DNA of 64,000 nt from Gymnopus androsaceus JB14. Its lineage: Eukaryota > Basidiomycota > Agaricomycetes > Agaricales > Omphalotaceae. The notes below the pieces were generated by a model. The model was not told the DNA's origin. It worked only from the letters and a program-made list of their open reading frames with translations, and ran no database searches. Positions 8,651-11,621 of this stretch are shown here, piece after piece; the stretch's first letter is position 1; each line of letters begins with the position of its first letter. The stretch is taken from contig ML769600.1 of the NCBI GenBank assembly GCA_009733575.1, positions 1 through 64,000 of the forward strand, in the 5' to 3' direction. Position numbers and translations under genes: made by a program.

Positions 8651-11621
8651 TCAAAAATTGACAGCACTCAGCACCTTTTCCCGGACACCCACAGCTTCGA
8701 TTTCCCCAACCTCAGACTTGACCCAATCCATCGCCTTCTCTATCAAACTCAACGCCTCCTCTCCTCCCCTTCGTTCCATCCACACCCAAGCCAACACCGT
8801 AGCACCAACATTTCCACTCACACCTATAGCAGCCAGCTTGTCTTCAACTTCCTGTACACTTGCTTGAATTCCCAAAACAACGAGAAGCGCAACGCTTAGA
8901 GAAAGCGCGCCGTTGAACTGCTGGAGTCGAGCAATGGCCGTGAGCTGGTCTCCTTCGGGCTCCATCTTGGGGTCTACTGTCATAGTAGAAACAGGAATCG
9001 ATGAGGAAGCTGTCGACGACTTTGATTTCTTTTTCTGCTTTTTTCGATGGCCTTTCATCGGAAGAATCACCCGTATTGGCTGCAACAGCCAGCTGTTTCC
9101 TAGGAGCCATGCCACCTGTGCTTTTTCTAGCAGTCGTACGGGTACGGGGCCTCTTTGAAGTTTCGCCAGCGTTGCTCGCCGGAAGCGGATGAGATTGTTC
9201 GGGCTCAAGAGATTCTTCTTCGTCACTGACTTTAGCCTCAATATCAATGAAGCGGGAAAGAGACCGAGACGAAGATGAAGATGATCTGAGCACTCGGTCT
9301 GTTGGGGGAGCTCTCACGCTAGATGAAGCCAGTTGCTTCCTCGCAGCCTTGCCACCACCGACACGACGAGCCGTCTGATGAGCCATCTGCAGACCACTAG
9401 CGCCATCCGAGACAGAAGTCGGGATCAAGTCCGGTTCTGGAAGCCTATGATCCACAGCAATATAACTCGTATACTTGCTGGTAAGCTGATACATCGTCCC
9501 AAGCCGTATGACCTCCTTCTTCATGTAAATACCCTTGAGCTCCGGATCATTTTCGAAGGAGCGGGATATGGAAATGGGGAGTGCGTGTTTCCCATCCTGA
9601 CGATCCGTAATGAGTGCCTTCGCAGCAAGGGTGTGAAGAAAAGTTCCCGGCGAAGAATTGGGGTCCAGCTCGGACTTGGCCTTGAATGGAAAGATGAGCT
9701 GCGATACTGGAACGACGAGTTCGATAGTGGCGCCAGTACTGGCGACTACACCCTTCACCTTGATCGAGGCTGGCATAGTATTGACTCCCTTCTCATGAGA
9801 GGGAGTGTTCAAGATGGCATAGATTTGTGTCCTTGTACCAGGAAATAGATTGGACACGACAAGAGGAGCTTGCTGAATGCTTGGAGGAGGTGGAAGCGTA
9901 GGATCTGGTGCCGGAGGAGGACCAATTGGGTGGTCTTCAGGCATCGCATCGTCATTGAACAAGGACAAGGCAGACGCCAGACCGGTATCTTTGTCGGGTA
10001 AAGTTTCCTTGTTCGGGTTGTCTACCATCTCAGAATCATCCTCCGCTTCCTGTACCTCATCTCCCGTCCATAAGACCGTGATATTTTTCATCGGAGGCGT
10101 TCTCGCAGCCCGGACAAGCCTTGCGCATTTCCCAACGACAGGCTCGCCTTGTTTGACGTACACTGCTACTCCAGCACCAGCGCGAGCGATACTGTCGCAA
10201 GTATCTGAAGATGCACCATTGCCGATACCGACGGTGAACACTCGGATGAAAGAGCTCGGCTCTTCGGGTTGGGGAAGGCTGGCGAGGGCAGTTTCGGTAC
10301 GGGAAACACACGATTTGACATCCCAGGCGCCGCCGTCAGTAAGCAGAATAACCGCAACGGGACGCGCAAGAGGTTTTGGCAACGAGGAGAAGACAAGTTC
10401 CAACGCTGAACCAATTTCTGTGCCTCCGTAATCAGCTTTCATGGCGCTGGAGTGCGGAAAAAAATTAGCATATAACACAAAAGCATCGTTCGAGATGAGC
10501 TTACTCGACATGATCTGTCGCCTCTTCCAAGCTCGTCTGAGAGTACTGCCGACTAACATCCCACAGTTTAGTAGCAGAAGAACCAAATGAGACGATGTTG
10601 AAAGTAGTTCCAGAGCTCGGAAGGCCGCGGAGAAGGACCACAAGTGCTTCCCGCACGAGTTTTATGTTGTCTCCTTGCATACTTCCACTCCGGTCAACGA
10701 CAAAGACGTACTCCATGCCTCCTTTAACGTCGGGGAGCGTAAACCGGGGAACAAATGTGAGAGCCATAGCAGTACTCTCGTGGTTTGGGCTTGGATGTGG
10801 CTCAACGAAGCATCGCGGCGAATCTAAGCCAGCAGCAGTAAGCACCAGGACGACGTCCTGAGTGAGGAAGCCTGAACTGTCAGAAAGGGAAACATTGGCA
10901 AAGTGCGAGGTATCATCGTTGGGAGGTGTAATGCCGTCTGGAAGTCCCATCTCAAAAGAGATTGGATGGCCAGAAGGACATGAGATGCTTTTGATAACAC
11001 CCGCCTGCTGCACAATAATGTCCATGACAAACGGCTGATGCGCGGTCTTTGCGGCGGTGCTGTTGTACGATGGCGCCGAGCCATACCGCTGAGCATATGT
11101 GCGAGGAAATATGAACTTAATTTGATCCTTGTTCTCGTCGTCCATGAGAGGCTGAACGTAACGCAAATTGATAGTTACAGTTTCCGAAGACGATATGTTT
11201 CCAACAGAGATAGAAAACACTATTGAAAGAGTTAGAGCCAATCATACTATAGTTGAAAATACGCACAGTCTGCGGTCTCTTGCTGCCCCAAACTAGCGGT
11301 CTTGCCGTCCTTAATGGCCTTCTCATATTCCTTTCTGGCCTCTTCCTTCTCCTTCACGATACCCTCAACTCTAGTGCCATCCTGCCTGATCATTTCAAAT
11401 CCGCAAATCGCAGCATTAGACATGATACCAAAGGTATACAATGCAGAACGAGCGCTGTCGGTTGTATTCGTGAAGCGCTGCGACATCATAACCGAGGCAT
11501 GAACATCTGCAATGAGGACTTGGACTGAGGAGCCATCCAGCACGAGGTCCATCCCCGTGCTAACATCGTACAGACGGCAGTAGGGAGAGCTGTGTGTGGG
11601 AGCGTATTTTGTTCTGGCCAT
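8651..11621 (-). CDS. VIT and von Willebrand A domain protein with histone H3-tail-like segments
   Basis: Three exons: 11621-11267, 11219-10505 and 10446-8651, with introns of 47 and 58 nt. Exon 1 and the start of exon 2 give a VIT domain. Exon 2 then gives a vWA domain with a MIDAS-type DRSGSM, continuing in exon 3 as VILLTDGGAWD. A Pro-rich linker leads to a second conserved block and an acidic/basic tail, and the family C-terminal helix region (ARLQQFNGALSL to AMDWV) closes it. Two tail segments (9087-9134 and 9324-9377) match the histone H3 N-tail closely, and the protein itself begins MARTK. The last 100 residues are reached only by removing one T from the six-T run at 9039-9044, which is either a consensus error or a real frameshift. 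Fungal VIT-vWA proteins are of unknown role; a cytoplasmic or nuclear scaffold is an inference. Confidence 0.85.
9087..9134 (-). other. Histone H3-tail-like segment 1 ([16 protein letters not shown])
   Basis: The 16 encoded residues match H3 positions 6-21 at 15 of 16 places; the exception is Met at the H3 K14 position. Lysines equivalent to K9 and K18 are kept. Confidence 0.9.
9324..9377 (-). other. Histone H3-tail-like segment 2 (QTARRVGGGKAARKQLAS)
   Basis: The 18 residues match H3 positions 5-22 at 13 places, including K14 and K18. The K9 position is Arg. It lies about 65 residues upstream of segment 1 in the same exon, separated by an acidic Ser-rich linker. Confidence 0.85.

What the first reader, a model, noticed from the sequence alone, without database searches (positions are those of the whole stretch)
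9087..11621. VIT-vWA protein carrying two histone H3-tail copies and an MARTK N-terminus
One tail segment encodes [16 protein letters not shown], 15 of 16 identical to H3 residues 6-21. Another encodes QTARRVGGGKAARKQLAS, 13 of 18 identical to H3 5-22. The protein itself starts MARTK, as processed H3 does (ARTK). Three H3-like features in one non-histone protein are unlikely by chance. They suggest histone mimicry: a substrate or decoy for H3 methyl- or acetyltransferases or readers. The K14 position is Met in one copy, and the K9 position is Arg in the other. I do not know of a described fungal VIT-vWA H3 mimic.
Basis: partly seen in the sequence, partly recalled or inferred. Interest (0 to 1): 0.88.

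Follow-up and report, generated by a model that had tools for sequence, protein, structure and literature searches.

The report
Histone-tail copies in fungal protein linker
A mushroom protein carries copies of the histone H3 tail at its start and in a floppy linker, and its relatives across fungi carry copies of other core cell proteins in the same spot, which looks like a set of molecular baits.

Summary
A VIT-vWA gene (minus strand, 11621 to 8651) encodes H3-like [16 protein letters not shown] (15/16) and QTARRVGGGKAARKQLAS (13/18) and starts MARTK. The two copies score 87 and 67 against the H3 tail; 100,000 shuffles of the linker reach 57. Among 173 other fungal VIT-vWA linkers 42 score >=60; 0 of 10,380 shuffles do. 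Distant homologues start MARTKQTARRSTG or MARTKQTPRS. The copies lie in a disordered linker between folded parts (orthologue model). Lysines are the least kept positions; R17, Q19 and A21 are invariant in 34 segments, which speaks against a substrate of lysine enzymes. The same linker in paralogues and homologues holds other self-copies: a whole H4, Ras switch I, the ribosomal P-stalk tail, Pol II CTD heptads, FG repeats, an R-SNARE motif. As uninterrupted DNA, YDPT[IV]ED occurs in this 83-Mb genome only in a Ras gene and one VIT-vWA gene, DMGFGLFD only in a P-stalk gene and another. Best reading: swappable baits for enzymes that attack these proteins. The mimicry is well supported; the bait function is inferred. 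The window allele has a frame break before its C-terminal domain.

The parts
11267..11621 (-). exon 1 of the VIT-vWA gene (hand gene model)
   Evidence: the splice joins restore the frame conserved in homologues
11607..11621 (-). MARTK N-terminus, H3 1-4 after Met removal
   Evidence: 8 homologues from Collybiopsis and Lentinula start MART (P0002,4,5,6,7,9,10,13); longer H3-like N-termini in P0069 and P0070
10505..11219 (-). exon 2
11158..11531 (-). VIT domain (residues 31-139; spans intron 1)
   Evidence: Pfam PF08487 E 7.5e-30
10164..10707 (-). vWA domain with DRSGSM metal site (residues 290-451; spans intron 2)
   Evidence: Pfam PF13768 E 1.8e-21, PF00092 E 5e-17
8651..10446 (-). exon 3, with a frame break (or unrecognised intron) at about 9027-9075
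   Evidence: P0003 reads through
9324..9377 (-). H3-like copy 1, QTARRVGGGKAARKQLAS (H3 5-22; K9R), the copy shared with orthologues
9087..9146 (-). H3-like copy 2, [20 protein letters not shown] (H3 2-21; K4R, K14M); seen here and in P0003, not in the other orthologues
8945..9443 (-). linker that holds both copies and a basic NLS-like cluster (limits approximate); disordered in the orthologue model
   Evidence: P0002 model: pLDDT under 50 at 701-832; basic clusters in 6 of 7 related rows examined
8654..8944 (-). C-terminal helical domain (VWA5A type), in another frame in this assembly

Best explanation
The gene encodes a VWA5A-type VIT-vWA protein: a folded VIT-vWA core, a long disordered linker and a C-terminal helical domain. 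It displays the histone H3 tail in two places: the free N-terminus (ARTK) and the linker. The linker is a site where fungi repeatedly gain, lose and keep short copies of their own core proteins (H3, H4, Ras switch I, ribosomal P-stalk tail, Pol II CTD, FG repeats, R-SNARE). I think it works as a bait or decoy: an enzyme that attacks H3 (a protease or an arginine-directed enzyme from a competitor, parasite or virus; not a lysine modifier) takes the copy instead. Cutting or binding the linker then uncouples the core from the C-terminal domain and signals attack. Shown: the copies, their position, recurrence, constraint and lysine loss. Predicted: disorder. Inferred: the bait role, the attacker and the signal.
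For: Window linker: 0 of 100,000 shuffles reach either copy. H3 tail score >=60 in 42 of 173 other linkers, 28 of 146 nonredundant, against 0 of 10,380 shuffles. PDB phmmer finds histone H3 at residues 713-745 of P0182, E 4e-10. An H4 gene with introns lies in the linker of own paralogue C576 (H4 E 2.7e-49). Genome-wide patterns: YDPT[IV]ED at 3 places (Ras gene, twice in VIT-vWA gene C2), DMGFGLFD at 2 (P-stalk gene C68, VIT-vWA gene C45), backward-read controls 0. De novo 6-mers shared by linkers: PRKQLA 23, GGLFGS 29, YSPTSP 6, GFGLFD 6 of 146; shuffles at most 3. R17, Q19, A21 invariant in 34 segments, lysines least kept (permutation p 1.4e-4; tree-based one-sided p 0.0014). Presence of H3 needs 17 changes on a FastTree tree, 16 forced by starred branches. 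Linker disordered between folded parts in the P0002 model. H3 is clipped between A21 and S22 in Plasmodium, reminiscent of mouse cells (PMC12269491, passages). In vertebrate PARP4, also VIT-vWA, one disordered exon is under recurrent positive selection read as pathogen conflict (PMC4038475, passages).
Against: No attacker, binding partner, cleavage or phenotype is known. The window allele has a frame break and C576 has a stop before its C-terminal domain, so some copies may be dead. 113 of 146 tree rows carry no H3 tail at the threshold used, and 4 of 9 own paralogues carry no cassette I recognise. FG and proline-rich stretches can arise by convergence. A targeting or scaffold role fits the copies too, and some linkers hold NLS-like clusters. 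The positive-selection result is for PARP4, whose C-terminal part did not match the fungal domain by HMM. The link between N-terminal and linker H3 is not significant once relatedness is allowed for (median p 0.125). The Dictyostelium relative Vwa1 works in development with an SCF F-box protein (PMC10539598, passages), not in defence.
Confidence: 0.47

Rival explanations
1. Address tags: each copy docks the protein to one cell machine (chromatin, ribosome stalk partners, Ras effectors, Pol II, nuclear pore, SNAREs). The linker sorts VIT-vWA proteins to places or condensates.
For: The copied pieces are known docking tails (recalled). Basic NLS-like clusters lie in the linkers of 6 of 7 related rows examined. 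Different paralogues carry different copies.
Against: Single proteins carry copies pointing to different places (P0182: H3 and P-stalk; P0190: H3 and GLFG; P0285: FG, SNARE and CTD, all below Pfam cut-off). PTM lysines, on which most chromatin readers depend (recalled), are the least conserved positions. At least 16 gains or losses of H3 is fast for a housekeeping address.
Confidence: 0.25
2. Regulator of the fungus's own chromatin enzymes: a competitive inhibitor of H3 methyl- or acetyltransferases, with K-to-M and K-to-R changes acting like inhibitory oncohistones.
For: K14M in 6 of 30 and K4R in 9 of 18 covered segments. K-to-M in H3 is known to trap SET enzymes (recalled).
Against: Lysines change to many residues (K14 to M, A, G, P; K9 to R, Q, S, T, I), not to one trap residue; the invariant positions R17, Q19, A21 are not the lysine sites. 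It does not explain Ras, P-stalk, CTD or SNARE copies in sister proteins.
Confidence: 0.12
3. Neutral relics of exon shuffling with histone and other highly expressed genes, without function.
For: The H4 insert keeps introns, so genomic DNA was captured. Presence is patchy. The window allele has a frame break.
Against: Synonymous sites near saturation with few peptide changes: H3 copy 2 pS 0.65-0.86, pN 0.15-0.16; copy 1 pS 0.59-0.76, pN 0.26; P-stalk pS 0.92, pN 0.03; Ras copies pN 0 and 0.06 (very short stretches, chosen for peptide similarity, which lowers pN). Three positions unchanged in 33 rows while neighbours vary. N-terminal and linker H3 likeness go together, 12 of 13 against 34 of 160.
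Confidence: 0.1
4. Chance or low-complexity similarity, or fused gene models.
For: Linkers are low in complexity; P0015 was named Histone H4 by a source. The short pattern ARKQLA is uninformative: 2 hits in the genome, 11 for its backward-read control.
Against: Shuffles, reversed H3 and the backward-read Ras and P-stalk patterns give none or almost none; the genome DNA itself shows the segments inside the gene between domains.
Confidence: 0.02

Closest known systems
VWA5A/BCSC-1 and Dictyostelium Vwa1 (intracellular VIT-vWFA proteins)
   Same: VIT, vWA and C-terminal helical domain; the HMM of fungal C-termini scores 59.8 bits in a coral VWA5A-like protein.
   Different: The fungal linker is long and carries copies of H3 and other core proteins; of six scanned patterns the two coral proteins show one SLFG each. 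Vwa1 is described with an SCF F-box protein in development (PMC10539598, passages).
PARP4 (vault PARP)
   Same: VIT-vWA core (P0182 against PARP4 chain 11jf, E 6.7e-26) and a rapidly evolving disordered exon (PMC4038475, passages). One of four fish PARP4s has a single YSPTSP and one a single SLFG.
   Different: No ADP-ribosyltransferase domain in the window protein; the C-terminal HMM does not find the four fish PARP4 sequences; no H3 pattern in them.
Viral and cellular histone mimics (for example ARKS-type mimics)
   Same: A non-histone protein with a stretch of H3 tail (papers seen in a listing only).
   Different: Here the mimic is the organism's own intracellular protein, matches up to about 30 residues, is also at the free N-terminus, loses its lysines, and is one of several self-copies.
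Integrated decoys of plant NLRs; protease tripwires such as NLRP1 and CARD8
   Same: Would work alike: a copy of the attacked target fused to a sensor (recalled).
   Different: No NLR, NACHT, TIR or CARD match in the window protein; short tails in a linker rather than whole domains, apart from H4; no effector known.

Membership tests
VIT-vWA (VWA5A type) | VIT domain followed by vWA domain with DxSxS metal site | tested here: met
   PF08487 E 7.5e-30, PF13768 E 1.8e-21; D293-S297 of P0002 invariant in 41 aligned proteins
VIT-vWA (VWA5A type) | C-terminal helical domain shared with animal VWA5A | tested here: met
   HMM of 124 C-termini finds coral P0074/P0075 at 59.8 and 59.7 bits, E 4e-19 in a set of only 30 sequences; present at 8654-8944 but in another frame in this assembly
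PARP4 | ADP-ribosyltransferase catalytic domain | tested here: not met
   No PARP domain in the Pfam scan of the window protein
PARP4 | vault-binding C-terminal domain | tested here: inconclusive
   HMM did not find 4 fish PARP4s, at least one of them partial; the MVP search of the genome was uninformative, as no control rang
Histone H3 | histone fold | tested here: not met
   No PF00125 match in the window protein
Histone mimic | H3-tail sequence beyond chance in a non-histone protein | tested here: met
Histone mimic (lysine-enzyme substrate type) | the modified lysines are kept | tested here: not met
   as a family pattern: lysine identity mean 0.54 against 0.84 for other positions over 34 segments
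Integrated decoy | copy of a host target built into another protein | tested here: met
   H3, H4, Ras and P-stalk copies compared with genes of the same genome
Integrated decoy | binds or is modified by a pathogen effector and triggers a response | not testable with these tools
   needs bench work
Protease tripwire | linker cleaved at the mimic site with a functional result | not testable with these tools
   only predicted disorder and position

The most novel reading that the evidence does not exclude
Fungi own a cell-autonomous bait array: VIT-vWA proteins collect swappable copies of the cell's most attacked tails (H3, H4, ribosomal P-stalk, Ras switch I, Pol II CTD, FG nucleoporins, R-SNARE) in one disordered linker and at the N-terminus; the H3 copies shed the lysines that the cell's own enzymes use. 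Attack on a copy by a toxin, protease or viral enzyme is sensed through separation of the VIT-vWA core from the C-terminal domain.
Probability: 0.38. Interest if true: 0.97.

Novelty: categorically new. Interest (0 to 1): 0.92.

Why it matters
If right, the linkers are a catalogue of which fungal proteins are under attack, written by evolution, and a new route of innate defence in fungi. It would also give VWA5A and PARP4, whose functions are unclear, a testable role. Even if the bait reading is wrong, I found no report of proteins that repeatedly acquire and keep copies of unrelated core proteins in one linker (listings; open-licence PMC papers only). The lysine-poor H3 copies are a natural experiment on what recognises H3 without its marks.

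Tried and rejected
Chance or low complexity: rejected by shuffles, reversed H3 and two backward-read patterns. The pattern for ARKQLA gave 2 hits and 11 in its control, so it says nothing. A search of the own genome with the window linker found only itself at E under 0.001; the next match was C296 at 0.00125.

Recent retrocopy of an H3 gene: rejected. Copy 2 matches the genome's H3 genes at 4-8 of 14 third positions; 4.1 expected for random synonymous codons. The best gene, C108, has 8, which random codons reach in about 2% of draws (reckoned against the C231 gene), so a faint excess is possible.

Fused gene models: rejected for the window gene (both copies lie in one open frame downstream of vWA) and for C2, C45 and C165, whose linkers are open through to the C-terminal domain. 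For C576 the H4 exons lie between the core and an in-frame C-terminal domain, but one stop separates them.

PDB search of P0241 named no linker cassette. Synaptobrevin: Pfam passed its cut-off in P0067 (33.8 against 26.4 bits) but not in P0296 or P0285; FG and CTD matches in P0285 are also below cut-off. The PDB support for P0067 is weak (VAMP4 E 0.011).

Phylogeny-aware test of N-terminal with linker H3: of 6 independent pairs 4.2 on average go the same way, 0 the other, 1.8 do not differ; median p 0.125.

Biases: of 2000 hits only the best 120 were listed and used; 8 of the 18 query rows carried an H3 tail; five of the 173 linkers (P0177, P0182, P0185, P0189, P0190) first came in through the H3-segment search (all but P0189 were listed again); one search drew words from the linker too. 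So 42 of 173 is not a prevalence. Dropped before counting: P0074-P0103 (animals, bacteria, unnamed, and the partial fungal P0094) and linkers under 40 residues, leaving 173 of 188 parsed; many of the 173 are unnamed and taken as fungal by similarity. The window linker and P0003 are not among the 173. P0004 carries a degraded H3 segment (score 44) and counts as lacking it. Position 22 was compared with Ser, the commonest fungal residue there. The cassette patterns were written after seeing linkers; the 6-mer count was not guided.
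Full report
Observation. The window holds a VIT-vWA gene on the minus strand from 11621 to 8651. Splicing at 11220-11266 and 10447-10504 gives a protein with VIT at residues 31-139 and vWA at 290-451. The protein starts MARTK. Past the vWA and a further folded region it encodes QTARRVGGGKAARKQLAS (9324-9377) and [20 protein letters not shown] (9087-9146). The gene goes on past 9087: a helical domain (8654-8944) follows in another frame. 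P0003, a 94% identical protein from an unnamed assembly, reads straight through with both H3 copies. So the window allele has a missed intron, an assembly error or a real frame break.

Chance. The part of the window linker with copy 1 scores 67 and that with copy 2 scores 87 against the H3 tail; 100,000 shuffles of the linker reach 57 at most.

Orthologues. Eight proteins, from Collybiopsis and Lentinula, start MART (P0002, P0004, P0005, P0006, P0007, P0009, P0010, P0013). Six of them have the linker, and each of the six carries one H3-like segment at the place of copy 1, for instance ARRSTGGKAARKQMA in P0002 and QSQRAGSGKAARKQLAPRAARKAA in P0005; that of P0004 is degraded. P0009 and P0013 end before the linker. 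Other VIT-vWA proteins of these genera that start otherwise (for instance P0008, P0012, P0021, P0030, P0032, P0037) have no H3 segment by score. Copy 2 is seen only in the window gene and P0003.

Wider. A search with the H3 segments returned 100 proteins at E <= 10; 9 lack a histone domain label, and 6 of these 9 are VIT-vWA proteins (P0003, P0177, P0182, P0185, P0189, P0190). The tails are much longer there: P0182 has [30 protein letters not shown]. Phmmer against the PDB finds histone H3 in P0182 at E 4e-10. A profile search gave 2000 hits at E <= 1e-20, of which the best 120 were listed. I cut out 173 linkers. An H3 tail score of 60 or more is reached by 42 of 173 (28 of 146 nonredundant), by 0 of 10,380 shuffled linkers and by 0 of 173 with reversed H3. 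This is not a prevalence, because the set is biased as told under Tried and rejected.

N-terminus. MARTK alone could be chance. But P0069 (Nemania) starts MARTKQTARRSTG, P0070 MARTKQTPRS, P0232 MTRTKQSARG, P0221 and P0225 MVRTNQPARH. At least 4 of 9 identities to ARTKQTARK occur in 13 of 173 N-termini and in 181 of 101,724 internal 9-mers. Twelve of these 13 also have the linker tail (score 53 or more), against 34 of 160 others (Fisher 4e-7). Shared descent inflates this; independent pairs on the tree point the same way but give median p 0.125.

What is kept. Over 34 segments (32 nonredundant proteins and the two window copies) R17, Q19 and A21 are invariant, and L20, A15, G13 and R8 are at 91-94%. 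K4 is kept in 3 of 18, K9 in 12 of 27, K14 in 17 of 30, K23 in 19 of 33, K27 in 20 of 29 and K18 in 27 of 34. Lysines average 0.54 and other positions 0.84 (permutation p 1.4e-4). Counted as changes on the tree, lysines change 0.33 times per row and others 0.14 (one-sided p 0.0014; R17, Q19, A21 no change in 33 rows). The window's K9R, K4R and K14M are part of this pattern. A substrate for lysine enzymes should keep its lysines. The core R17-K18-Q19-L20-A21 ends where H3 is clipped in Plasmodium, between A21 and S22, a cut said to be reminiscent of mouse cells (PMC12269491, passages).

Age. Codons of copy 2 agree with the genome's own H3 genes at 4-8 of 14 third positions (random 4.1). Counts give pS 0.65-0.86 and pN 0.15-0.16 for copy 2, pS 0.59-0.76 and pN 0.26 for copy 1. 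So this is an old, constrained copy or a convergent one, not a recent one. On a FastTree tree of 146 proteins built without the linker, presence of H3 needs 17 changes, 16 of them forced by starred branches: frequent gain and loss.

Other copies. The H3 tail is one of several. Own paralogue C576 carries a divergent H4 between the core and the C-terminal domain, with at least the first two introns where the genome's own H4 gene has them (H4 E 2.7e-49) and one stop before the C-terminal domain. Own paralogue C2 carries YDPTVED and YDPTIED; as uninterrupted DNA this pattern occurs in the whole 83-Mb genome only there and in a gene that I read as Ras ([32 protein letters not shown]; name by recall). 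Own paralogue C45 carries EESDDDMGFGLFD, identical to the tail of an acidic ribosomal stalk gene on C68 (P1 or P2; Pfam PF00428); DMGFGLFD as uninterrupted DNA occurs only in these two. Own paralogue C165 has four LFG repeats. Four of nine own paralogues (C151, C347, C317, C6) show nothing I recognise. Elsewhere, of 146 nonredundant linkers, 59 hold GLFG (100 shuffles, mean 0.78), 5 hold Pol II CTD heptads, 6 GFGLFD, 4 DPT[IV]ED and 9 IDYSD[ED] (0 in the shuffles for these four); the last resembles the N-terminus of fungal Sub2 by recall. Synaptobrevin passes the Pfam cut-off in P0067. An unguided count of shared 6-mers gave the H3, FG, CTD, P-stalk, Ras and IDYSDE groups and two that I cannot name.

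Mechanism. The pieces copied are tails or loops of essential proteins known as targets of toxins, proteases and effectors (recalled: P-stalk as docking site of ribosome-inactivating proteins, Ras switch I of glucosylating and proteolytic toxins, VAMP of clostridial proteases, FG nucleoporins and H3 of viral proteases). Several occur together in one protein (P0182, P0190; P0285 below Pfam cut-off), which fits bait better than address. In vertebrate PARP4 positive selection is confined to one disordered exon and was read as an ancient conflict with pathogens (PMC4038475, passages). I therefore hold a bait or tripwire most likely (0.47), an address role next (0.25). The attacker, the cut and the signal are inferred.

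Literature. The listings showed no report of H3 or other self-protein copies in fungal VIT-vWA proteins. Only open-licence PMC papers are covered. PMC10539598, PMC13174449, PMC12269491 and PMC4038475 were read in passages; others were seen in listings only.

Novelty. VIT-vWA proteins, histone mimics and integrated decoys are each known. A family that keeps exchanging copies of its own cell's core proteins in one linker I could not place, hence the rating; if the bait role is shown it would be a new class of integrated decoy.

Noticed in passing
P0174 residues 427-460, P0192 residues 403-439 (Clonostachys, Lachnellula proteins): A second, unrelated family of about 950 residues with weak reverse-transcriptase similarity (RVT_1 E 1.3e-3 in P0192, below cut-off; none in P0174) carries near-complete H3 tails, K14M in P0192, and a DLIDYSDEE stretch beside H3 in P0174.
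   Followed up: partly
P0201 (unnamed ENA protein, 684 residues): A SET-domain protein carries several H3-tail copies, one with K14M.
   Followed up: no
L035 (G000:C576:1-6000), minus strand: An H4 gene with introns lies inside a VIT-vWA gene; its tail has lost lysines too (GRGGM). One stop separates it from the C-terminal domain.
   Followed up: partly
window 9027-9075: Frame break or unrecognised intron between H3 copy 2 and the C-terminal domain; a close relative is open here.
   Followed up: partly
linkers of 14 and 18 nonredundant VIT-vWA proteins, mostly Ascomycota where named: Two recurrent cassettes of unknown source: YRSEMDEAACMPLPDE-like and LQDYQMGLMxLEQQNKxR-like.
   Followed up: no
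P0026 (Flagelloscypha), linker: Long arginine-serine repeats like an SR splicing protein, beside Pol II CTD-like heptads.
   Followed up: no
window 1939-7606: Pieces of retroelements: RNase H-like and integrase zinc-binding matches on plus, zf-RVT below cut-off on minus.
   Followed up: no
window 56441-61284: Two long open frames of TPR repeats with TPR-S (sensor) matches, perhaps part of a fungal NLR-like gene.
   Followed up: no
L039 (G000:C306:22000-24500): An H3-like gene with [14 protein letters not shown] in its N-terminal part and a divergent histone frame, possibly the CENP-A gene.
   Followed up: no
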